Shown here: positions 1 to 9,581 of the stretch, piece by piece | How positions within the stretch are numbered: position 1 is the stretch's first letter | Layout: each line of letters starts with the position of its first letter | Notes under the pieces: generated by a model | Seen by the model: the letters and a program-made list of their open reading frames with translations, nothing else | Databases searched by the model: none | What the model was told of the DNA's origin: nothing | Program-made: the position numbers and the translations under genes | Assembly (NCBI GenBank): GCA_003676145.1 | Contig: NAUB01000026.1 | Location: 1-64,000 of the forward strand | Direction of reading: 5' to 3' | Source: a gamma proteobacterium symbiont of Stewartia floridana | Lineage (GTDB): Bacteria; Pseudomonadota; Gammaproteobacteria; Chromatiales; Chromatiaceae | DNA length: 64,000 bases

Positions 1-48
1 TGAATGTCCTGCGTGTTTTTCCCATTTTGTCACCTGTTAATCATCTAG

Positions 49-195
49 GGTGATAATATCACCTATAATCAGGTGGCCAAATTAACTATGCCACTACAGC
101 GGGCCTACGATTACGCAGCATCACAAAAAGTGGAGTCAGTAGCACGGCTATTACTGCAACACGGAGCCGACCCAGAAATCAGGGAGTACGTGTAA
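49..195 (+). pseudogene. Remnant of an ankyrin-repeat cassette ORF
   Basis: The reading frame ending in TAA at 193-195 carries an ankyrin-like helix pair (SVARLLLQHGADPEIRE). The same frame has a TAG at 46-48, so only about 48 codons remain. The only ATG that leaves any protein (88-90) gives 35 residues, too short for a stable ankyrin protein. I read it as the 3' end of a cassette gene whose upstream part is shifted out of frame or lies before the window. It is followed directly by an attC-like site, which fits a gene cassette. Confidence 0.5.
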
Positions 196-197
196 AT

Positions 198-275
198 GCC
201 TAATAAGTACATCATGTCGCCCTTCGGGCTGGGACGACTGACTTCACCAGCCGCCCAATATGTCGGGCGTTAGAG
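198..275 (+). repeat. attC-like cassette recombination site
   Basis: GCCTAAT at 198-204 and GTTAGAG at 269-275 fit the outer attC core sites. Between them are imperfect inverted arms (gtcgcccttcgggctggg near 215, tgtcgggc near 261). It lies between two short + strand ORFs, where an attC should be. The bounds rest on the core sites only. Confidence 0.6.
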
Positions 276-281
276 TTGTAA

Positions 282-569
282 ATGAGTAAATCTGATTTAA
301 CTTGGATAATCATAAGGTTCACGGGTCTTTTTCTTGCTATAAAGGCATTGGTTACTCTACCAGAAGTAATTAGTAGCTTTTGGTTTCTCTACACCGTAGG
401 CCCAGATATTGAAAATGAATTACCAGGCGTTCAATTCTCCCTGAAGGTGACACTAAAGGAAGCAACAAAAGGAATAATGCACCTATTGCTATATGGGTTT
501 GGGGCTTTCTATCTTATCTTTCGTGGTTCAGCAGTATTTAAACTTGTACGTATACCAAATAGTTATTAA
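282..569 (+). CDS. Small membrane protein in an integron cassette
   Basis: This 95-residue protein has two hydrophobic stretches (about residues 8-40 and 65-85) split by a polar loop, so it is probably an inner-membrane protein with two segments. I do not recognise a family. The start lies 7 bases after an attC core and the stop just before the next degenerate attC, as usual for a one-gene cassette with almost no leader. Expression would depend on read-through from an upstream cassette promoter. AT-rich codon use resembles the neighbouring cassettes and differs from the pst genes downstream. The function is unknown. Confidence 0.65.
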   Translation: MSKSDLTWIIIRFTGLFLAIKALVTLPEVISSFWFLYTVGPDIENELPGVQFSLKVTLKEATKGIMHLLLYGFGAFYLIFRGSAVFKLVRIPNSY

Positions 570-623
570 GAAAACTCAAGAAAATAGAACAAGATAGGGG
601 TCTCGTTAACGTAACTGTTAAGC
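563..623 (+). repeat. Degenerate attC site
   Basis: GTTAAGC at 617-623 is the right-hand core. The preceding ggggtctcgttaacgtaact is shared almost exactly with the attC sites near 2010, 3900 and 4797, so this belongs to the same attC family. The left arm is poorly conserved: no clear cgagac partner is seen. The left bound is therefore approximate. Confidence 0.55.
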
Positions 624-629
624 GCAAAA

Positions 630-1589
630 ATGTATCAAGCGATGAACATACATAGCCTACCAATTCTTCTCTTCTTTATTGCTGTTTGGTCGCCAGTATT
701 GACTGCTGATGACTATCCAGATGGTTATATTGCTCGTCAGCTTGTTTCTGCTAAAACACCAATCGAAGTTAATATTACAAACCTGAAGCCCGGCCAACTT
801 ATGGCTATTGAATATGTAGATATGCCGGTATGGATTTATAGACGCACTACAGAGGATATTGAGTATTTATCAAAAAACAATACTTCAGTTTTGGCTGATC
901 CAATGAATGAGAATCAGAAATCGTCTATTGAGGTGGCATACGGGTCATCAGCCTCATATGTCTGGGGGAGGTTGCTACTTATTGATCAACCCGAAATTGA
1001 CAAAAAACCATTTCGATCGATAAAAGAAGAAATATTTGTTGCCGGTGGCTGGAGTCCACACTCTGGTTGTGTTTTGACCTATCAACCGAAAGAAAATCGC
1101 AATAAACCCAACGCTGCTTTCTACGATCCATGTACAGGTGCTTGTTTCGATGTGGCTGGTAGGATTATTAAGGGTAAATTGAGTGGAAGTCGGGCGGGTG
1201 ATCTTGGAAAATACAATCTATATATCCCGCCATATAAGTTAAAGAATGACACAACTCTGTTAGTGGGCGTGACCGAGGAAAGCAAAATACCAGAAATCGA
1301 AGTGCATAAGAAACGGTGGTATTTAGGAATGACAGCTACAGAAAAGCTAATTACCGCCAGTAGATATAATGATTTTGAGACGGTTAAGTTGGCGCTAAAA
1401 GAAGGTGCTAATGCGAGTTATTACGAAGTAGGGAAAGGCAGTCCACTGGATGCGGCAATAATTGGAAGTTCAATCAATATTATAGAACTGCTCATAACTA
1501 ACGGTGCCAAGCCGACACCAAATTCATTGAACGCAGCAAAATTTGTAGGACGGACAGAGGTAGTTAAATTAATCATGGAAATGCAATAG
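630..1589 (+). CDS. Exported protein with C-terminal ankyrin repeats (cassette)
   Basis: The 319-residue protein begins with a signal-peptide-like segment (hydrophobic residues about 8-25, then TADD). Residues about 26-230 form a domain I do not recognise; it has paired cysteines around 144-168 (SGCVLTY, DPCTGACFD). The last 85 residues carry about two ankyrin-type helix pairs (KLALKEGANAS, ELLITNGAKP). It is a single cassette gene bounded by attC sites at about 563-623 and 1600-1652. An in-frame ATG at 642 is an equally good start. Ankyrin cassettes usually mediate protein contacts; here the target is unknown, and a periplasmic location is inferred from the signal peptide. Confidence 0.7.
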   Translation: MYQAMNIHSLPILLFFIAVWSPVLTADDYPDGYIARQLVSAKTPIEVNITNLKPGQLMAIEYVDMPVWIYRRTTEDIEYLSKNNTSVLADPMNENQKSSIEVAYGSSASYVWGRLLLIDQPEIDKKPFRSIKEEIFVAGGWSPHSGCVLTYQPKENRNKPNAAFYDPCTGACFDVAGRIIKGKLSGSRAGDLGKYNLYIPPYKLKNDTTLLVGVTEESKIPEIEVHKKRWYLGMTATEKLITASRYNDFETVKLALKEGANASYYEVGKGSPLDAAIIGSSINIIELLITNGAKPTPNSLNAAKFVGRTEVVKLIMEMQ

Positions 1590-1599
1590 TGAAAGTACC

Positions 1600-1652
1600 G
1601 CATAACAAGGTGCCAAAATCGGCTTCGCCGCCGCTCGGCTAGGTCGTTAGGC
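1600..1652 (+). repeat. attC site
   Basis: GCATAAC at 1600-1606 and GTTAGGC at 1646-1652 are complementary core sites. Between them lie inner arms around a GC-rich hairpin (ggcttcgccgccgctcggct). Length about 53 bases. This arm sequence differs from the gtctcgttaacg type, so at least two attC families are mixed in the array. Confidence 0.8.
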
Positions 1653-1657
1653 TTAAC

Positions 1658-2041
1658 ATGAAATTGCCACTCTATGTGTTTCTGGCCGGATCGGCTCTAT
1701 CACCAAGCTTCGTGAATAGCGAGAGTTTCGATACGGCCAACGAGCTATCCACTAGTATTTGTGGAATCGATAAGTACCTTTCTTGTATGGGCTTGAGCAG
1801 AGAAGCTTGCATCAGCCACTATAAAAACGCTTATAACGACTGCCCAAAGAAAAGTTACAAGGGAATGGAGTATGCTGATCCTGTTTGCACAGCAGAAACA
1901 TTTATCCGCCATACAGAAGTCGCACCGGAAACGATTGCTAAGTGTGATTCCATTCTGGAGCGTATGCTGATTAGAGAGAAGCCTGGAGCATTGCCTAAAA
2001 AATATTACCGAGACAGGGGGTCTCGTAAACGTAACTGTTAG
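1658..2041 (+). CDS. Exported cysteine-rich cassette protein
   Basis: This 127-residue protein has an N-terminal signal-like segment (MKLPLYVFLAGSALSPSFVN) and about six cysteines in the mature part (SICGID, LSCMG, EACISH, DCPKK, PVCTA, KCDSI), suggesting a disulfide-bonded periplasmic or secreted protein. I know of no matching family. The reading frame continues through the whole downstream attC: the last ten or so codons (RDRGSRKRNC) are attC sequence and the stop TAG is part of the GTTAGGC core. Joining to a different cassette would not alter the protein, because the stop lies before the exchange point or within the core. Confidence 0.65.
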   Translation: MKLPLYVFLAGSALSPSFVNSESFDTANELSTSICGIDKYLSCMGLSREACISHYKNAYNDCPKKSYKGMEYADPVCTAETFIRHTEVAPETIAKCDSILERMLIREKPGALPKKYYRDRGSRKRNC

Positions 2042-2043
2042 GC
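1993..2043 (+). repeat. attC site overlapping a CDS end
   Basis: GCCTAAA (1993-1999) and GTTAGGC (2037-2043) are outer cores; the extended ends TTGCCTAA and TTAGGCAA are exact inverses. The inner arms cgagac and gtctcg flank a short loop (aggggg). This compact 51-base site is the best-preserved copy of the array's most common attC type. Confidence 0.85.
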
Positions 2044-2050
2044 AAATGAA

Positions 2051-2503
2051 GTGAGTAGACTTGTATACTTTCTAATTTTACTTATTTTTTTCTCGCCGTT
2101 AGTCGCAGAGGATTTCTGTGATAAGGCATACTGGGATATCGCATTAGTTAAAGAAGAAGAAAAATGTCTTAACAATGCAGAGTTAGGTAACGATGAAGCG
2201 CAATTTGGTTATGGTCTTATACAGCTTGGAGGCCATGATCGAATTTCAAAACCAAATGAAGCTTTCGAATGGTTTACTAAAAGTGCTAAACAAGGAAACC
2301 ATTTAGCTCAAACGATATTCGGAAGGATGTTAAGTGATTCACGTTTTGGTGTTTCACTCGACTTGCCAAATGCCTATGCATGGTGGGCTGTATCAAATAA
2401 TAAAAACTCAGCTAATAAATTATGGTTAAGATTAACATCAGATCAACAGGACAAAGCAAAAGAGCTAGAGAAAAAATATGCGTCAGCATATGTTAGAGAA
2501 TGA
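2051..2503 (+). CDS. Exported Sel1-repeat protein (cassette)
   Basis: The 150-residue protein has a signal-like start (LVYFLILLIFFSPLVAED) and then about two Sel1-like repeats (AQFGYGLIQLGG, EAFEWFTKSAKQGNHLAQ, AYAWWAVSNN). Sel1 repeats are short helix pairs, typically adaptor surfaces in periplasmic proteins. The start is a GTG 8 bases after the attC core; no ATG fits the frame. The next attC begins 9 bases after the stop, but an insertion sequence now splits it. The molecular role is unknown. Confidence 0.7.
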   Translation: MSRLVYFLILLIFFSPLVAEDFCDKAYWDIALVKEEEKCLNNAELGNDEAQFGYGLIQLGGHDRISKPNEAFEWFTKSAKQGNHLAQTIFGRMLSDSRFGVSLDLPNAYAWWAVSNNKNSANKLWLRLTSDQQDKAKELEKKYASAYVRE

Positions 2504-2511
2504 ATTAAATT

Positions 2512-2529
2512 GCCTAAAAAATAGTAACG
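2512..2529 (+). repeat. Left half of an attC split by an IS element
   Basis: GCCTAAAAAATAGTAACG matches the left arm of the intact attC sites at 1993 and near 4775 up to base 2529, where IS sequence begins. Its partner resumes at 3893. Joining the two halves restores ..TAACG-AGACAGGGGG.., the same as the 4768-4817 site. Confidence 0.8.
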
Positions 2530-2544
2530 TATATGGACTCCTCC

Positions 2545-2789
2545 AGTTGAGCAACTGCAGTGACGCAGAAAAACAAATAGTTTAGTTAACGTATATCCGG
2601 TCTTTATTGTGGGGAGCGACCCCTGACCTGAACGGTTTAATCCACCGTAAACCAGATTCCTTATCGAGACAGTGGCGTCATGCGCCATCGTTACTACCAG
2701 GTTTTATCTGGTCTGACTATTTTGTCATTCTCCATTCACACAGTTACTCTTACCTGGCTTACAACAGTCGGCTAAGAGTGAATGCCGGG
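2545..2789 (-). ncRNA. Candidate seek/bridge RNA region of the IS1111-type element
   Basis: In IS1111-type elements the guide RNA is encoded 3' of the transposase; this is that interval. On the + strand it contains TAACGTATAT at 2587-2596, identical to the host-IS junction at 2525-2534, and CGAGACAG at 2665-2672, identical to the restored attC target. An ACCAG/CTGGT hairpin lies near 2696-2712. These are the kinds of matches expected of target and donor guide loops. GTTAACGTA around 2585 also occurs in the attC right arm, so the first assignment is not unique. The exact RNA ends are not determined. Confidence 0.5.
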
Positions 2790-3815
2790 TTACTGGGCGA
2801 CAGGCGCCCGATATGCTTCACCTGTTCTTAAGATCGACCATGCCATTCTGACGATCTTGTTAGCCAATGCGACTGCCGTATTGTTGGTATGTTTGGTGAG
2901 TTGCTGATGACGGATCCAGGCACTTAAACCATCGGTCTTATCGCCTAAACGATGAAGCGTGGAGCGTGCACCATGCACCACCAGGCAGCGAAGATAGCGA
3001 TCGCCGCGTTTTGTAATCTTACCTAACCTGTTTACTCCTCCGCTGCCCGAGTGTGCCGGTACCAATCCAAGGCTGGCACTGGCATCACGTCCGCGTCTGA
3101 ATGCACTGCCATCCCCCAGACGCGCATATAACATACTCGCCACAAGCCATCCGACACCGGGTACTTTTTCCAGACGGACACAGGCATCAATCCGTTTGGC
3201 CTGGTTAACCAAGGCCGCAGTTGCCTCTTTGATAATCTCATCAAGCAAAATGAGTTGATCAAGCAACTGTCTCAAACAAGCTCTTGCGACTACGGTTAGT
3301 TCGTTCTCTGCATCCTCCAGAGCAGCGGGGACCTGTTTACGTAGGTGCTGAATCCCTTTGGGGAACTTGACGCCGTACTCCAGAGCAAATCCCCGGATAC
3401 GGTTACCCAGCTGCGTACGCTGTTTGATATAGCCAGCGCGCAATTTATGCTGTGTGGCCAGGTCTTGCTGCTCAAGTGTTCTGATGGTGACGAAATAGAT
3501 GTTGGGATTTTTCGCAGCTTCATAGATTGCAAAGGCATCATTCTTGTCGTTTTTATTTCCATGTCGGTACCGCGCAACAATGTGTGGTGGGATTAACTTT
3601 ACCTTGTGTCCCAATTGCCTGAATTGTCGTCCTCAGTAGTGCGCCGAGGCACAGGCTTCCATATAAATGACTGCCTCGGGGTGGTTGGTGACGAATTGCC
3701 TCACCTTCTTTGGATATATAGGCTTGTTAATCAATGATTTACCGTGTTTACTAAAGACAGCCACCTGAAAGATGTCTTTGGCCAAATCAATCGTAATGGT
3801 GGTAGTATTATTCAT
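2790..3815 (-). pseudogene. IS110/IS1111 transposase interrupted by one in-frame TGA
   Basis: The N-terminal part (60 residues from 3815) has the RuvC-like DEDD start ITIDLAKDIF and the acidic VIYMEACASAHY. A TGA at 3635-3633 follows, then the same frame continues as [16 protein letters not shown] and on for about 280 residues. That part includes the second acidic pair KNDKNDA, the transposase_20 helix-hairpin region [12 protein letters not shown] and the serine motif PAHSGSGG. Total length would be 341 residues, normal for the family, and relatives usually have Trp (TGG) where the TGA is. A single G-to-A change therefore explains the break. It is probably inactive unless read through or supplied in trans. 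Confidence 0.85.
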
Positions 3816-3892
3816 GGTGTGGGCTCCTTGGGTTGTGGTGACCTTCCACTTTACCGAGCTTCCGGTTTAAAGGGGAGGAGTCCATACCATTG

Positions 3893-3925
3893 AGACAGGG
3901 GGTCTCGTTAACGTAACTGTTAGGT
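3893..3925 (+). repeat. Right half of the split attC
   Basis: agacagggggtctcgttaac and the following core GTTAGGT (3919-3925) continue the attC arm broken at 2529. GTTAGGT still fits the GTTRRRY core, so the site would be usable if the IS were removed. Confidence 0.8.
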
Positions 3926-3934
3926 GTCATAAAA

Positions 3935-4204
3935 ATGAACAAACCAGATACATCTAATAGAGAAATTGCGAAACCTGAATCACAATCAGATATTGTTCAC
4001 AGTAGAAAGGCAAGGCCACATCACGTGTTATTGGCAGCACTAATGGCACCAATCTGGTTTTATATTATTACTAGCGCACCACTCCCAGATGGTGGGTATA
4101 TTTTTGTAACTCTATACGTATTGCCAGGTATTGCTATTTTTCTTGGGTTATCGGCGCTAATTGAGTGGGTATTTGGAATAAATGGAAAGCCACCAAATAA
4201 ATAA
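3935..4204 (+). CDS. Small two-helix membrane protein (cassette)
   Basis: The 89-residue protein has a polar N-terminal third (residues 1-29) and two hydrophobic stretches (about 30-48 and 54-80), so it is a likely inner-membrane protein with its N-terminus in the cytoplasm. I recognise no family. It starts 9 bases after an attC core and ends 6 bases before the next attC, the pattern of a simple cassette. The inserted IS now separates it from upstream cassettes, so any read-through expression would have to cross or start from the IS. Confidence 0.65.
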   Translation: MNKPDTSNREIAKPESQSDIVHSRKARPHHVLLAALMAPIWFYIITSAPLPDGGYIFVTLYVLPGIAIFLGLSALIEWVFGINGKPPNK

Positions 4205-4210
4205 AGAAGC

Positions 4211-4315
4211 ACCTAACAATACGCTTCAACCGACCCATCTACGCGGCACTCGTTTTGTGCAAGTTCGCACAAAACAAGCGCAGCTACGGTGGTCGGCTGA
4301 GCTAGGTCGTTGGGG
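4211..4315 (+). repeat. Long attC site
   Basis: ACCTAAC (4211-4217) and GTTGGGG (4309-4315) are the cores. Long inner arms (tcaaccgaccc near 4225 and ggtggtcggctga near 4288) and a central gttttgtgcaagttcgcaca hairpin make a site of about 105 bases, a different attC type from its compact neighbours. Confidence 0.8.
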
Positions 4316-4323
4316 TTAGATAA

Positions 4324-4779
4324 ATGAAAAGCAAGCGTCTAGGTTTAATCGTATTTGTATTTATAGCTGGTGCTATTAGTGGGTATTTTCTTGGTGAACG
4401 TAAAACTGAGGAAAAATTCGAAAAGCTATTCTATTTGGGTGAGGCAAACCAACTCACTACTAGAGTACAGATCCTATCGGCTATACATTACGGTGATAGC
4501 AAAGAAGCTGCTAAATGGCTAGAACATTATGTAGATGGGAATTTGATAGTATTAGGCCCGTACAAAGAAATCGCCTTAAAGGAAAAAAATCCAATCATAT
4601 TATCCTCTTTAAAGCTAGCGTCTATTTATAGAGATAAGTACAGAGACCAGCGCTCAAAGGTAAAAGGAGAAAACCCAGATATTAATGCTTCTATCAGTGA
4701 AACCTTGGCATTTGGCAAACAATACGGTGAGATCACCCATAAAGATTTCGTCAGGAAATATTTAAACACTAAAAAATAA
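4324..4779 (+). CDS. Membrane-anchored helical protein (last cassette)
   Basis: The 151-residue protein has one N-terminal membrane segment (residues about 6-24, LGLIVFVFIAGAISGYFLG) and a charged, mostly helical remainder that should lie in the periplasm. There are no cysteines or recognised motifs. A start ATG lies 8 bases after the attC core. Its last codons run into the next attC. It is the last ORF of the array before the pst operon. The function is unknown. Confidence 0.65.
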   Translation: MKSKRLGLIVFVFIAGAISGYFLGERKTEEKFEKLFYLGEANQLTTRVQILSAIHYGDSKEAAKWLEHYVDGNLIVLGPYKEIALKEKNPIILSSLKLASIYRDKYRDQRSKVKGENPDINASISETLAFGKQYGEITHKDFVRKYLNTKK

Positions 4780-4817
4780 TAACGAGACAGGGGGTCTCGT
4801 TAACGTAACTGTTAATG
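4768..4817 (+). repeat. Terminal attC site of the array
   Basis: The cgagac/gtctcg inner arms and the right core GTTAATG (4811-4817) match the compact attC family; the left core has degenerated (aacacta). No cassette ORF follows: the next 240 bases are without a gene and the pst operon, read the other way, begins. This marks the distal end of the cassette array. Confidence 0.7.
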
Positions 4818-5055
4818 CCTGCTTCCCGGAAGTACTGAAATTATATCCAATGTCTGCTTCGGTCGCTCAGCGGACGTTTCAGTTTACCAAACGCAGATAA
4901 TAGCTTTCCGCATACAGTGACAGGAATAAGTCACATCCTGCGACGATTTGTCTTACTAAACTAGCTTTAAATGATTACTTCCAAATAACCTATTTGCGTT
5001 AATTAGCGTTCATTTGCGGACTTTTCATTAACAGCAGTAAATTAAAGCCAGCCCA

Positions 5056-5847
5056 CTAACCATACCGACCTTCAATATAATCGGCCGTCTCTTTCTGCTC
5101 AGGAGTAACAAACAGATCTTCCGTCGCTTGATGCTCGATCACTTTACCCATCAGCATGAAGATACACTCTTCACTGGCCCGTCTGGCCTGGGCCATGTTG
5201 TGTGTCACAATCAGGATGGTGTATTCTCCACGCAGCTCCCAGATCAACTCCTCAACCGCAGCGGTTCCCTTCGGGTCCAAAGCAGAGCAGGGCTCATCCA
5301 TCAGCAGTACGCTGGGTTTCACCGGCAGCAGCCGGGCAATGCAGAGCTTCTGCTGCTCCTCCAGGGAGAGTTCGGTGCCCTTGTCGTTCAAACGATCCTT
5401 GACCTTGTCCCACAGCAGCACCTGCTTGAGTGCTGACTCGATGATCTCATCCTGATCCGCCTTGGAGCCTTTGTTGTGCAGGCGATGGCCGAACAGAATG
5501 TTGTCGCGGATTGAGATCGGCAGTGGGTTGGGGCGCTGGAATACCATGCCGATCTGCTTTCTGACCTGTACCAGTTCGACAGCCGGATCGTAGATGTTGT
5601 TGTCCAGGACATTGATATCGCCTTCGATACGCACATAGCCAAGACGCTCGTTGATGCGGTTGACACTGCGCAGAAAGGTCGATTTACCACAGCCGGATGG
5701 GCCGATCAGCGAAGTGATCATGCCATTTCGAATACTCAGGTCCACATCGAAAAGGGCTTGAAAGGTGCCGTACCACAGATTCAGCTTCCGGGTATGAATG
5801 GCATACTCTGGGGATTGGTTGTCGTCTTGATCTATTATGGCATTCAT
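5056..5847 (-). CDS. pstB: Phosphate ABC transporter ATPase with degenerate signature motif
   Basis: Cytoplasmic ATPase of the high-affinity phosphate importer, 263 residues, normal PstB length. Walker A (GPSGCGKST, 49-57), Q-loop (Q104), Walker B (LLMDEP, 181-186) and the switch histidine (H216, VTHNM) are intact. The ABC signature, normally LSGGQ, reads LSLEE (160-164). It is the last gene of the operon, 42 bases after a second PstB-like gene that has the opposite defects, so the two probably pair as a heterodimer. This subunit would supply the ATP-hydrolysing face of the good site. The family assignment is certain; the heterodimer is inferred. Confidence 0.93.
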   Translation of the reverse strand: MNAIIDQDDNQSPEYAIHTRKLNLWYGTFQALFDVDLSIRNGMITSLIGPSGCGKSTFLRSVNRINERLGYVRIEGDINVLDNNIYDPAVELVQVRKQIGMVFQRPNPLPISIRDNILFGHRLHNKGSKADQDEIIESALKQVLLWDKVKDRLNDKGTELSLEEQQKLCIARLLPVKPSVLLMDEPCSALDPKGTAAVEELIWELRGEYTILIVTHNMAQARRASEECIFMLMGKVIEHQATEDLFVTPEQKETADYIEGRYG

Positions 5848-5889
5848 GTTGGTTTTCGTATTCGTGTTAACAGGCTCTAAGCATCGGCA

Positions 5890-6705
5890 TCAGCCGAACT
5901 TACCCTCGACGTAATCACGGGTTCTCTGGTCCTTCACCTCGCCGGTGAAGAGATCCTCCGTATTGCCTACCTCGACACATTCGTTTTCGAGGAAAAAGGC
6001 GGTTCGGTCAGCCAGACGTCTCGCCTGTTGAACCAGATTGGTGACCAGGATGATGGTCATGTCCTTTTTCAGCTCTTTGAGCACATCCTCGATGCGCATG
6101 GTGGTGACCGGATCGACGGCAATCGAGAATTCGTCCAGCATCAGCAGGTCCGGATCCTGTGAGAGCGCTCTGGCGATGGTCAGGCGCTGTTGCTGTCCAC
6201 CGGAGAGCAAGCTGCCGAGTGAGTTGAGGCGATCTTTCACCTCGTCCCAAAGGGCGGCACGGGTCAGGCAGCGTTCAACGATGACATCCAGTTCGCTCTT
6301 ACTGTTTATACCTCGTAGCCTGGGTGACAGGGCAACGTTTTCATAGATTGTCAGAGGCAGACCCACTGGCAGGGGAAACACCACACCGATGCGGCTGCGC
6401 AGGGCATAGATATTCTTCAGATCCTGAATATCCAGTCCATTGAATTTGATCTGTCCCTCAACCGACATGTTTGTGTCAAAGGTGTCCATACGGTTGATCG
6501 ATTTCAGGAACGAAGTCTTCCCCGCATTGGCCGGGCCGATGATGCCGAACACCTCATGCTCACGTATTTCCAGGTTTACCCCTTTGAGTGCGGTGTGTTG
6601 GCCATATTTAATGGTCAGGTCATTGATTTCCAGTTTGACCGGGGCCTCTTCCGCGACAGGAACCTCTTCTGCCTCGACTTTGAGATTGGTATTGGGATTT
6701 ACCAT
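5890..6705 (-). CDS. Second PstB-like ATPase lacking Q-loop and switch residues
   Basis: 271-residue PstB homologue with an extra acidic N-terminal tail (about 22 residues). Walker A is GPANAGKTS (57-65), Walker B LLMLDE (187-192) and the signature is a perfect LSGGQ (167-171). The Q-loop glutamine is replaced by proline (VVFP, 111) and the switch histidine by asparagine (VTNLV, 223). The start overlaps the end of pstA by 7 bases, so translation is coupled. In a dimer with the downstream PstB its LSGGQ would complete that subunit's nucleotide site, while its own site would be weak. Confidence 0.9.
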   Translation of the reverse strand: MVNPNTNLKVEAEEVPVAEEAPVKLEINDLTIKYGQHTALKGVNLEIREHEVFGIIGPANAGKTSFLKSINRMDTFDTNMSVEGQIKFNGLDIQDLKNIYALRSRIGVVFPLPVGLPLTIYENVALSPRLRGINSKSELDVIVERCLTRAALWDEVKDRLNSLGSLLSGGQQQRLTIARALSQDPDLLMLDEFSIAVDPVTTMRIEDVLKELKKDMTIILVTNLVQQARRLADRTAFFLENECVEVGNTEDLFTGEVKDQRTRDYVEGKFG

Positions 6706-7568
6706 TTCTTTTTACCTCGCAGATACATGCGGAAGGCGATCGAGATGCTGTTCATGATCAGCACCATGGCAATCAGTACCAGCGCCACACCAAAGGGCAG
6801 CTCTTCCGGTACGCCAGGCACCTGGGTTGCCACTACGAACAGATGCAGCGACATCGCCATGGTCTGATCGAATACGCCCTGAGGCAGGAATGGCAGGAAG
6901 AATGCCGCACCGGTAAACATGATCGGTGCGGTCTCGCCGGCGGTGCGGGAGACTTCGAGAATCACACCGGTCAATATGCCGCTGATCGCATTCGGCAGCA
7001 CAATCCGTCGAATGGTCTGCCATCGGGTCGCACCCATATTCCAACAGGCTTCACGAAACGCCTGTGGCACCGCTCTCAGTGACTCACGGGTTGATACGAT
7101 GACGATCGGCAGGGTCATGATGGCCAGAGTCAGACTGGCCGCCAGTATGCTGGTGCCAAAGCCGAAGAAGATGACAAAGGCGCCGACCCCGAAGAGTGCG
7201 TGAACAATGGACGGAACACCGGCCAGATTGATGATCGCCAACTGGATGAGGCGGGTAAACCAGTTGTCGCCGGCATACTCATTCAGATAGATGGCTGCGG
7301 CTACACCCAAGGGCACGGAGGCGAGCAGGGCAACTGCCACGATCCATACGGTACCCAGCAGGGCGGGAAAGATACCGCCGGCGGTCATCCCATCGGTGGG
7401 ATTGGTAAACAGGAAGTCGATTGAGATGACACCGCCGCCTTTGGAAACCAGGGTGAACAGAATAATCGCCACCGGCACGATCAGCAGTACGGTCATCATA
7501 AGAAAAAGCATGCGAAACAGGCCTTGTACCCGTTTGTTTCTGGCATTCAGATCGGATTCTGCAAACAT
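6699..7568 (-). CDS. pstA: Phosphate ABC transporter permease PstA
   Basis: Inner-membrane permease half of the phosphate importer, 289 residues, with a cytoplasmic N-terminus and about six membrane helices. The binding-protein-dependent permease signature (EACWNMGATRWQTIRRIVLP), which contacts the ATPase, is at about residues 173-192. It lies 5 bases after pstC and overlaps the next gene by 7 bases, consistent with one coupled operon. Confidence 0.95.
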   Translation of the reverse strand: MFAESDLNARNKRVQGLFRMLFLMMTVLLIVPVAIILFTLVSKGGGVISIDFLFTNPTDGMTAGGIFPALLGTVWIVAVALLASVPLGVAAAIYLNEYAGDNWFTRLIQLAIINLAGVPSIVHALFGVGAFVIFFGFGTSILAASLTLAIMTLPIVIVSTRESLRAVPQAFREACWNMGATRWQTIRRIVLPNAISGILTGVILEVSRTAGETAPIMFTGAAFFLPFLPQGVFDQTMAMSLHLFVVATQVPGVPEELPFGVALVLIAMVLIMNSISIAFRMYLRGKKKW

Positions 7569-7573
7569 CTGCC

Positions 7574-8506
7574 TTACCCCTTACGGATGCCACGGACAAT
7601 CAGGTCCGCAGTCAGGTTGATCAGAAAAGTAATGATGAAGAGGAAGATGCCGATGGTGAACAGCGCCTGATAGTGAGGCGAGCCCACAGCGGTTTCACCC
7701 AGTTCTGCGGCGATGGTGGCGGTCAATGCCCTTACCGGGTCGAACAGACTGCCCGGAATGTTTACTGCATGACCTGTGGCCATCAGGACTGCCATCGTCT
7801 CACCGAAACCACGGCCGACACCAAGCAGTACCGCACCCAGCAAGCCGTTTTTCGCAGCTGGCAGCACAGTTTTGAAGATCACCTGCCAGCGGGTTGCGCC
7901 GAGGGCTTCGGCGGCTTCCCGGTAACGGTCAGGAACTGCTTTCAGTGCATCCTCCGCGATCGATGTCATGATCGGTGCCGCCATCAGTCCGAGGATGACG
8001 CCGGCATTCAATACATTCAGGCCGACCGGTACATCGAACAGATCGATGATCAGCGGGTTCATGATCGACAGGCCGATGAATCCCCAGACGACAGATGGGA
8101 TGGCGGCCAACAGCTCAACCAGTACCTTGAGTGTCTCGCGGACTTTACCGGTGGCGAACTCACCGATATAGATCGCTGCACCAAGAGAGAAGGGGATGGC
8201 GACGATCATTGCCAGACCGGTGACACTGGCGGTACCGGCAATCAGTGCCAGGATACCGTACTCCGGTGCATCTTCGTCAGAGGGCTCCCAGAAAGGTGAG
8301 AGGAAAAACTCCTTGAAGGTGAAATCCTCAAACAGAAATCCAAGTCCCTCCATGGTAATGAAGACGAAGATACCGATAATAAAGATGATGGCGGAGATGC
8401 CGGCAAAAAAGACGATAAGTTGAACAACCTTATCGATGTACCAATCCAGGTCCCGACGGTCGAAGTCCGCGGTGCTGGCTAACTTCGTTGAGCTGGCTTC
8501 GGGCAT
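7574..8506 (-). CDS. pstC: Phosphate ABC transporter permease PstC
   Basis: Partner permease of PstA, about 310 residues, with about six membrane helices and the ATPase-contact loop EAAEALGATRWQVIFKTVLP. I chose the ATG at 8506, one base after the phoU stop, because GGGGAGGG lies about 9 bases before it. The ATG at 8524 would put that ribosome site inside the gene and overlap phoU by 17 bases. The periplasmic loop after helix 1 (about residues 65-80) is short. It acts in the inner membrane to form the phosphate channel. Confidence 0.94.
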   Translation of the reverse strand: MPEASSTKLASTADFDRRDLDWYIDKVVQLIVFFAGISAIIFIIGIFVFITMEGLGFLFEDFTFKEFFLSPFWEPSDEDAPEYGILALIAGTASVTGLAMIVAIPFSLGAAIYIGEFATGKVRETLKVLVELLAAIPSVVWGFIGLSIMNPLIIDLFDVPVGLNVLNAGVILGLMAAPIMTSIAEDALKAVPDRYREAAEALGATRWQVIFKTVLPAAKNGLLGAVLLGVGRGFGETMAVLMATGHAVNIPGSLFDPVRALTATIAAELGETAVGSPHYQALFTIGIFLFIITFLINLTADLIVRGIRKG

Positions 8507-8507
8507 C

Positions 8508-9581
8508 TCAGGCACCCTCCCCACGAAGCAGCTCCATCAAATCCTTAATTAATACGGCAAGCTGGTGGTAGAGATGATCAAAATCATGACTATCCTCATC
8601 ATGGGGAATTTCACCAAGCTCCCACTCCAGTGCAGAGGTGTGGAATGGAAGTTTCGGTAGATAGGTTTCAATATTGCCTTGCAGACAGACGACTACATGC
8701 TGCTCTGAGATCTCTTTTTCAGTCAACTGGTCGAGGCTGTTTATGTTGGCCTGGCTGTAGTCAATGCCTTTGCTCTGCAGAAAGGTGGCAAGATTGCTGT
8801 TGATCTCGGCAGCTGCAACACTGCCTGCGCTACGATATCTGCCCACATCCGGGTGGTTGCGACGGGCAATTGCTTCGGCCAGTTGGGAGTGGCAGCTGTT
8901 GTCCTCATCGACAAACAGGATGTTGAATACTTTCGGTTTCTTCTGCTCACCGGTGACGGCAAATATCGTATCCTCACAGAGGTTCTTTGACTGGTCAGCG
9001 ATACGTTTGAGTTGGGTAAAGACGACGAAGATCGCCAGCACTTCAGCAACCCGCTGTCGATCGTCATTGGCCATCATCTCGGTATATACGACGTCCAGAT
9101 TGTGTTCCAGTTCATCCCCCATGAGCATGGTGCTTTTTGCCAGTTCCGCATTCAACTCGGTGAATGCCTTGACCGACTGTTTCAGCATCAGCATGGTTTC
9201 ACCCGCAACCCGGTCCAGTTCTCTGCCGAGATTGCCACTGGGTGGTTCGGAGAGCTGCGCGGACTCGCGCGCGATGGTGACTGCATAGTCACCAATACGC
9301 TCCAATTCAATGTTGGCGCGGATCACCGATGAGAGCAGACGCAGATGGCCGCCGCTGGGGATATGAATCGCAAAAAATCGGTGACAGATCCGATCGATCT
9401 CCCGCATACATCGATTGATCGGGTTGTCATTCAATACCGTGGTAAAGGCAAGTTTTCGATTGCCGGTCTGTAAGGCGTAAACCGAGTTCTTAACAGCCTC
9501 CTGAACCTGGGCCCCCATTTTGGCGACTCGTTCGTGTAGATCATTGAGGTCTCGTTCTAATCGTTCTTCAAGATGGGACAT
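8508..9581 (-). CDS. phoU: PhoU fused to a degenerate LMW phosphatase/ArsC-like domain
   Basis: Residues 1-205 are the PhoU helical bundles with the metal-binding ERIGDYA and LKRIADQSKN repeats; PhoU restrains Pst and Pho signalling. Residues 217-350 look like a low-molecular-weight tyrosine phosphatase/arsenate reductase fold (FNILFVDEDNSCHSQLAEAI). The catalytic CxxNSCRS loop reads DEDNSCHS (225-232), so the nucleophilic Cys is Asp and the Arg is His. The domain is probably non-catalytic and may bind an anion or partner. At 357 residues it is about 120 longer than normal PhoU. It sits between pstS and pstC, an unusual place: in enterics phoU ends the operon. Confidence 0.9.
   Translation of the reverse strand: MSHLEERLERDLNDLHERVAKMGAQVQEAVKNSVYALQTGNRKLAFTTVLNDNPINRCMREIDRICHRFFAIHIPSGGHLRLLSSVIRANIELERIGDYAVTIARESAQLSEPPSGNLGRELDRVAGETMLMLKQSVKAFTELNAELAKSTMLMGDELEHNLDVVYTEMMANDDRQRVAEVLAIFVVFTQLKRIADQSKNLCEDTIFAVTGEQKKPKVFNILFVDEDNSCHSQLAEAIARRNHPDVGRYRSAGSVAAAEINSNLATFLQSKGIDYSQANINSLDQLTEKEISEQHVVVCLQGNIETYLPKLPFHTSALEWELGEIPHDEDSHDFDHLYHQLAVLIKDLMELLRGEGA

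What the first reader, a model, noticed from the sequence alone, without database searches (positions are those of the whole stretch)
2512..3925. IS1111-type element placed exactly inside an attC, with guide-like matches in its non-coding end
Removing 2530-3892 rebuilds a full attC with no target duplication. The 245 bases 3' of the transposase contain TAACGTATAT (2587-2596), identical to the junction at 2525-2534, and CGAGACAG (2665-2672), identical to the rebuilt target. This is what an RNA-guided IS110/IS1111 element aimed at attC sites would show: host cassette mobility parasitised through an RNA copy of its recombination site.
Basis: partly seen in the sequence, partly recalled or inferred. 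Interest (0 to 1): 0.85.

Follow-up and report, generated by a model that had tools for sequence, protein, structure and literature searches.

The report
RNA-guided jumping gene inside integron site
In a bacterium of a clam-symbiont genus, a small jumping gene of a known, RNA-guided kind sits exactly inside the recombination site of an integron gene cassette, and its relatives suggest that swapping the guide RNA, not the enzyme, changes which version of that site is hit.

Summary
An IS1111-type IS (1363 bp, 2530-3892, minus strand; one-base ambiguity) splits a short attC without target duplication. Its non-coding end is predicted to fold like a seekRNA/bridge RNA.

Tests: both guides together occur in 2 of 20,000 shuffles; 9 of 11 full genus copies have a perfect 8-nt right guide (2 do not); model loop positions predict flanks in 17 of 21 diverse elements against 16 of 420 swapped. 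In one single-contig genome two copies with 339/341 identical transposases carry different non-coding ends and sit in different attC subtypes, each matching its own right guide.

IS1111 elements that target attC, with seekRNAs, are published (ISKpn4, ISPst6), so this is a new member of a known kind. Apparently new: a transposase clade apart from those, and guide-linked switching between attC subtypes within one genome. No RNA data. This copy's transposase has an in-frame stop, so it is probably not autonomous.

The parts
2530..3892 (-). IS1111-type insertion sequence, 1363 bp (equally 2529-3891; one-base junction ambiguity)
   Evidence: 13-bp subterminal inverted repeats; single copy in the own genome; the left-end pattern occurs in 8 of 22 genus genomes, in G002 only as a decayed remnant
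2790..3815 (-). DEDD transposase gene, interrupted by in-frame TGA at codon 61 (3633-3635)
   Evidence: Pfam PF02371 2.9e-16 and PF01548 6.4e-08 on the downstream open part, no family on the 60 residues before the stop. Intact relatives exist
2545..2789 (-). non-coding region 3' of the transposase
2584..2725 (-). predicted seekRNA/bridge-RNA-like region
   Evidence: covariance model R1 built from 11 genus copies; matches 20 of 32 non-genus elements at E<=0.05; own fold z -2.28 for 2580-2730 and -1.48 for 2620-2720
2689..2696 (-). right target guide TAGTAACG: complementary to core plus right flank CGTTACTA
   Evidence: (I18)
2673..2688 (-). hairpin between the two target guides
   Evidence: minimum-energy and RNAalifold consensus folds
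2665..2672 (-). left target guide CTGTCTCG: identical to left flank plus core
   Evidence: (D8)
   Evidence: changes with the element's own right end in relatives, e.g. ATATACG, ATACACG, ATATATG, ATCTATG; own match >=7 nt in 21 of 34, swapped 220 of 1122
2631..2636 (-). weak candidate donor guide ACCGTT for the IS left end AATGGT (needs one G.T wobble)
   Evidence: by eye; little statistical support over relatives: own >=7 nt in 8 of 34, swapped 114 of 1122
2512..2529 (+). 5' arm of the split attC, R'' GCCTAAA then AAATAGTAACG
   Evidence: intact equivalents
3893..3925 (+). 3' arm of the split attC, ending in R' GTTAGGT
2051..2503 (+). ORF of the gene cassette whose attC is split
   Evidence: 92% identical cassette without the IS at G000 contig 9

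Best explanation
This is an IS1111-family insertion sequence whose non-coding 3' end makes a short guide RNA (seekRNA/bridge RNA). One internal loop carries two short guides around a hairpin: the 5' one pairs with the top strand of the right half of the target, the 3' one with the bottom strand of the left half, overlapping at a CG core. Together they spell TAGTAACGAGACAG, the 5' arm of one attC subtype, so the transposase-RNA complex inserts the IS there in one orientation, right end towards the upstream cassette. A downstream segment pairs with the IS's own right end. Recombination between copies exchanges the non-coding module and so redirects the element to another attC subtype. Shown by sequence: the insertion, the guide-target concordance and covariation, the mosaic copies. 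Predicted: the fold. Inferred: that the RNA is made and bound, that pairing drives insertion, that recombination made the mosaics, and that the split attC no longer recombines. This copy has a stop in its transposase, so the insertion probably predates that change.
For: Exact insertion without duplication, and identical uninterrupted arms elsewhere. Guide pair in 2 of 20,000 shuffles. 9 of 11 full genus copies with a perfect 8-nt right guide; permutation p 0.0006 for perfect matches, 0.0003 for matched bases. G009: 7 of 7 full copies perfect on the right guide; L022 and L028 transposases 339/341 identical, non-coding ends differ, targets CGTTATAC and CGTTACTA; L034 shares most of its transposase gene with L016 but has the other right guide and the other target. 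L018 (66% identical transposase) has guide TGGGAACG and sits at CGTTCCCA beside a palindrome that is not an attC. Loop positions of the model predict flanks: summed match >=10 nt in 17 of 21 against 16 of 420 with swapped flanks, p<=5e-5. Own genome: no other site matches the 14 bases exactly. Guide-hairpin-guide layout seen by eye in ISPa25-, ISKpn4- and ISPa62-annotated copies in attC. In the literature seekRNAs with target matches co-purify with the ISKpn4 and ISPst6 transposases, and need for the RNA and reprogramming are shown for ISEc11 and ISEc21 (PMC11187229).
Against: No RNA data. L015 and L017 have 2 and 3 mismatches in the right guide at their sites. Left-guide matches are short in the second subtype (6 nt in L022, L025, L034; 4 in L035) and in L018 (5). 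The model missed 12 of 32 non-genus elements at E<=0.05, ISKpn4 among them, and four of the 21 elements scored below 10 nt (L069, L073, L077, L079). With a stricter rule and no model, 16 of 33 elements gave no guide pair. The left-end donor guide is weakly supported. Only 4 of 31 consensus pairs have changes on both sides; the shorter fold is not unusual (z -1.48). Related copies are not independent, so the permutation p is a guide only. In one search the backward control gave more two-mismatch matches (43) than the pattern (24), so only the near matches in attC sites mean anything. The window copy's transposase is interrupted and no other close copy was found in the own genome.
Confidence: 0.9

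Rival explanations
1. The transposase itself recognises attC (its sequence or its folded hairpin), without RNA guidance.
For: 10 of 11 full genus copies lie in attC or attC-like sites, in one orientation; an uninterrupted site folds as single-stranded DNA (z -6.04, z -2.95).
Against: Transposases 339/341 identical sit in different attC subtypes that match their non-coding ends; L018 sits in a non-attC site matched by its changed right guide; IS1111 relatives are shown to use an RNA (PMC11187229).
Confidence: 0.04
2. The IS came here as part of a cassette by integrase action rather than by its own insertion.
For: It lies in a cassette array.
Against: The IS has its own ends and splits the attC arm at a fixed point, not at the G/TT crossover (rule recalled); the flanks printed for the 11 copies (45-60 bases) differ outside the attC.
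Confidence: 0.03
3. The guide-like matches are chance, and the attC insertion is coincidental.
For: Single 8-mers do occur in shuffles (67 and 118 of 20,000).
Against: The pair, its order, its place in the predicted loop, covariation in 11 copies and prediction in diverse elements.
Confidence: 0.01

Closest known systems
IS1111-attC elements such as ISKpn4, ISPst6, ISPa25, ISPa21 (Tetu and Holmes 2008; Post and Hall 2009; neither paper held, known through citing passages)
   Same: IS1111 family; insertion in the 5' arm of attC with the right end towards the upstream cassette, and guide-hairpin-guide layout, as judged by eye in fetched copies
   Different: Transposase part 40% identical to the ISPa25 copy and 34% to the ISKpn4 and ISPa62 copies, in a separate clade; another attC arm sequence (TAGTAACGAGACAG instead of TTCAAGC-type arms beside GAATTGTTAG)
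seekRNA of ISEc11 and ISXne4 (Siddiquee et al. 2024, PMC11187229)
   Same: Top-strand guide 5' of bottom-strand guide, matches overlapping in the target, natural redirection by changed guides
   Different: There the two transposases are 72% identical; here copies with 339/341 identical transposases in one genome differ in non-coding end and target
Bridge RNA of IS621 (Durrant et al. 2024, PMC11208160)
   Same: RNA with guides for target and donor around a core
   Different: IS110 group, RNA in the left end; here the RNA is 3' of the transposase and the donor guides are less certain

Membership tests
IS1111 family | DEDD N-terminal domain plus Transposase_20 C-terminal domain | tested here: met
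   PF01548 (33 bits, cut-off 29) and PF02371 (60.1 bits, cut-off 21.3) on the open part; the gene is interrupted at codon 61
IS1111 family | Subterminal inverted repeats with a longer left than right extension, no target duplication | tested here: met
   13-bp repeats; 5 bases outside at the left end, 3 at the right; no duplication
IS1111 family | Long non-coding region downstream of tnp | tested here: met
   2545-2789
IS1111 family | seekRNA with two target guides, top-strand match 5' of bottom-strand match | tested here: met
   (sequence and predicted fold only)
IS1111 family | RNA co-purifies with the transposase and is needed for movement | not testable with these tools
   no RNA or assay data
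IS1111-attC group | Insertion in attC at fixed position and orientation | tested here: met
   the window and 9 of the other 10 full genus copies; L018 is not in attC
IS1111-attC group | Common descent with ISKpn4/ISPa25 | tested here: not met
   the attC label needs three changes, also counting starred branches only; the window clade groups with L041 and L067, not judged to be in attC. Labels by eye; flanks of the other rows were not screened for attC, so one origin with losses is not excluded

The most novel reading that the evidence does not exclude
IS1111 elements evolved attC targeting at least twice, and in Thiodiazotropha they follow the diversification of attC subtypes by recombination that exchanges only the seekRNA module or just the right guide while keeping the transposase: a natural, within-genome reprogramming system tied to integron evolution.
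Probability: 0.55. Interest if true: 0.65.

Novelty: new member of a known kind. Interest (0 to 1): 0.5.

Why it matters
The mechanism is known, but this genus offers a natural experiment: near-identical transposases with exchanged non-coding ends sit in different attC subtypes. That ties the RNA, not the protein, to target choice outside the laboratory, shows how guides change in nature, and gives a test bed for the guide rules of IS1111 elements. In genome G009, 8 of the 17 sites of this attC kind that the patterns found carry the IS or a remnant of it (8 left ends; 9 uninterrupted sites at up to 2 mismatches), so the effect on cassette arrays could be large.

Tried and rejected
Rfam gave no match at E<=1 in 1-6000, so a model was built from the genus copies. 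A first look for ends and guides in distant relatives and a first tree used minus-strand loci unturned (14 of the 46 tree rows); both were redone with strands corrected, and only those are used. Own guide pairs of summed length >=13: 13 of 33 against 9 of 1056 swapped; 16 of 33 had no pair. The left-end donor guide could not be established. The ISPa21-annotated copy L077 is not in an attC by its flanks. In one search the G001 relative of the cassette was not found by the script and was not compared. No structure prediction was run.

The number of transposase identities with known attC elements was measured only on a late check.

Full report
What is there. The window is the first 64,000 bases of a 140,154-base contig of genome G000. 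Its genus holds G014, whose contig 5 has the length and IS of a Candidatus Thiodiazotropha MAG record (L002), so the window is very probably of that genus (lucinid-clam symbionts, recalled). Bases 1-4815 are an integron cassette array: ORFs on the plus strand separated by attC sites of several kinds, one kind being a short site with the palindrome TAACGAGAC-AGGGG-GTCTCGTTA. An IS on the minus strand, 2530-3892, splits one of these. Its 13-bp subterminal inverted repeats are perfect, and joining the flanks gives the arm TAGTAACGAGACAG that occurs uninterrupted in G006, G014 and G021. There is no target duplication; the junction is ambiguous by one base.

Is the target an attC? The cassette that carries the IS begins with TTAGGCAA (2038-2045) and ends with TTGCCTAA (2510-2517), the complementarity expected of cassette ends (the rule is recalled). 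A 92% identical cassette in the same genome has a different, uninterrupted attC. The integron-integrase model TIGR02249 matches 21 of 22 genus genomes, 19 of 22 above its cut-off; in the own genome only two fragments at contig starts. The uninterrupted site at 4764-4816 folds as single-stranded DNA with z -6.04, the one at 1995-2043 with z -2.95.

The guides. A third match, CGTTACTA (2689-2696), is an 8-base inverted repeat of the left junction (I18). Read as RNA from the minus strand, the order is TAGTAACG (complementary to core plus right flank), a hairpin, CTGTCTCG (identical to left flank plus core). That is the order reported for IS1111 seekRNAs: top-strand match 5' of bottom-strand match, overlapping in the target (PMC11187229, section 9). 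The predicted fold puts the two guides opposite each other beside the hairpin, partly and weakly paired with one another; its z is -2.28 for 2580-2730 and -1.48 for 2620-2720. In 20,000 dinucleotide shuffles TAGTAACG appears in 118, CTGTCTCG in 67, both in 2, ATATACGTTA in 3; a relaxed ordered-pair test gave 5 of 20,000. It is most likely a donor guide; the longer match to the flank is peculiar to this copy.

Specificity in the own genome. The 14-base arm TAGTAACGAGACAG has no other exact match; one site (C4:4777, an uninterrupted attC) has 1 mismatch, and 22 further places have 2, among them six attC sites on contig 9. The backward control gave 43 matches at that setting against 24, so two-mismatch matches outside attC sites are background.

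Copies in the genus. Eleven full copies were compared; L002 and L003 are the named-record versions of L015 and L017. Right guide TAGTAACG meets CGTTACTA in L001 (window), L016, L028 and L031; GTATAACG meets CGTTATAC in L022, L025, L034 and L035; TGGGAACG meets CGTTCCCA in L018, which sits beside a palindrome that is not an attC. Nine of 11 are perfect over 8 nt; L015 and L017 have 2 and 3 mismatches. Permuting guides over sites gave p 0.0006 for perfect matches and 0.0003 for matched bases; the copies are related, so these are guides only. Left-guide matches run from 8 nt down to 4.

Mosaic copies. In G009, a single-contig genome with seven full copies, L028 is 99-100% identical to L022 over the first 1000 alignment columns and 100% (rounded) to L031 over the rest. 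The transposases of L022 and L028 agree at 339 of 341 residues, yet L022 has guide GTATAACG and sits at CGTTATAC, and L028 has TAGTAACG and sits at CGTTACTA. L034 is 96-100% identical to L016 per 100 columns up to column 900 but carries the other right guide, as a tract of changes at columns 1207-1216 within a backbone like L028/L031, and sits in the other attC subtype. All seven are perfect on the right guide. Target choice here follows the non-coding end and not the transposase.

Beyond the genus. A covariance model from the 11 copies matched 21 of 42 other loci at E<=0.02, and 20 of the 32 further elements given to at E<=0.05. Taking only the two loop positions of the model, the summed match to the element's own flanks was >=10 nt in 17 of 21 (20 elements plus the window) against 16 of 420 with swapped flanks; permutation p<=5e-5. 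Below 10 nt were L069, L073, L077 and L079. Two extra matches in L068 were left out. A search without the model gave 13 of 33 against 9 of 1056 at >=13 nt, with no pair in 16 of 33.

Relation to what is known. IS1111 elements that insert in attC are known since 2008-2009 (Tetu and Holmes; Post and Hall; neither held, seen only through citing passages). In 2024 seekRNAs carrying target matches were found with the transposases of ISKpn4 and ISPst6, a matching one was predicted for ISPa25, and need for the RNA and reprogramming were shown for ISEc11 and ISEc21 (PMC11187229: abstract, sections 6, 9, 10, 13 and passages; PMC11208160: passages). I fetched copies annotated ISPa25, ISKpn4, ISPa21 and ISPa62, one unnamed Stutzerimonas element and an Arenimonas element (L006). 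By eye, five of these six sit in attC with the right end towards the cassette, and all six show the guide-hairpin-guide layout; the ISPa21-annotated copy is not in attC. Exact right-flank matches there are 6-9 nt in the five. The window's transposase part is 40% identical to the ISPa25 copy, 34% to ISKpn4 and ISPa62, and 58% to a Pseudoalteromonas plasmid element, L067, that sits in a tandem repeat. In a tree of 46 transposases the Thiodiazotropha elements form a clade with L041 and L067, apart from the ISKpn4/ISPa25 clade; the attC label needs three changes, one of them due to L077. Two origins are the simplest reading; labels were given by eye, other rows were not screened for attC, and some rows have long branches.

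In print. In the held library Thiodiazotropha plus integron gave one unrelated paper, and bridge RNA plus IS110 plus attC only Durrant et al.. A wider search was seen as a listing of 20 of 30. I found no report of the guide-linked switch, within these searches.

State of this copy. The transposase frame has a TGA at codon 61, and no other close copy was found in the own genome. Intact relatives exist. The copy is probably not autonomous now; a sequencing error in the assembly cannot be excluded.

Verdict. A real, well-explained feature: a new member of a known kind, with an unusually clean natural case of guide-linked retargeting in its relatives.

Noticed in passing
L026, L146, L123, L168, L113, L110, L028: A conserved block ending TATAGAGGTCTTGCTATAA recurs directly before short attC-like arms; in G003 (contigs 3 and 21) and G006 it lies about 140 bases from an integron-integrase match, so it may be the attI of this genus, with an attC-like arm that the IS also hits (L026).
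   Followed up: partly
L018/L041 (G006:C1:4308348 onwards): A relative with a 66% identical transposase sits beside a palindrome GTTCCCACGCTCCAGCGTGGGAA that looks like a REP (recalled), with a matching right guide TGGGAACG.
   Followed up: partly
L034 (G009:C1:465841-467204): The copy with the switched right guide has a stop in its transposase at codon 135, so it moved before that change or was served in trans.
   Followed up: no
G000 contig 9, 61-5042: Six attC sites with a third arm type AAATAACGAGACAG, two mismatches from the window's guide pair, none of them occupied.
   Followed up: partly
L128 (G002:C9:3511): A decayed left end of this IS kind at a site without a visible attC palindrome.
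   Followed up: no
L067 (Pseudoalteromonas donghaensis plasmid): The closest element found outside the genus (58%) sits in a short tandem repeat (CACTTCGTAACTCG-like), not in an attC.
   Followed up: no
5056-8524: Minus-strand genes that look like a phosphate ABC transporter (by eye, recalled), with two PstB-like ATPases in a row, follow the array.
   Followed up: no
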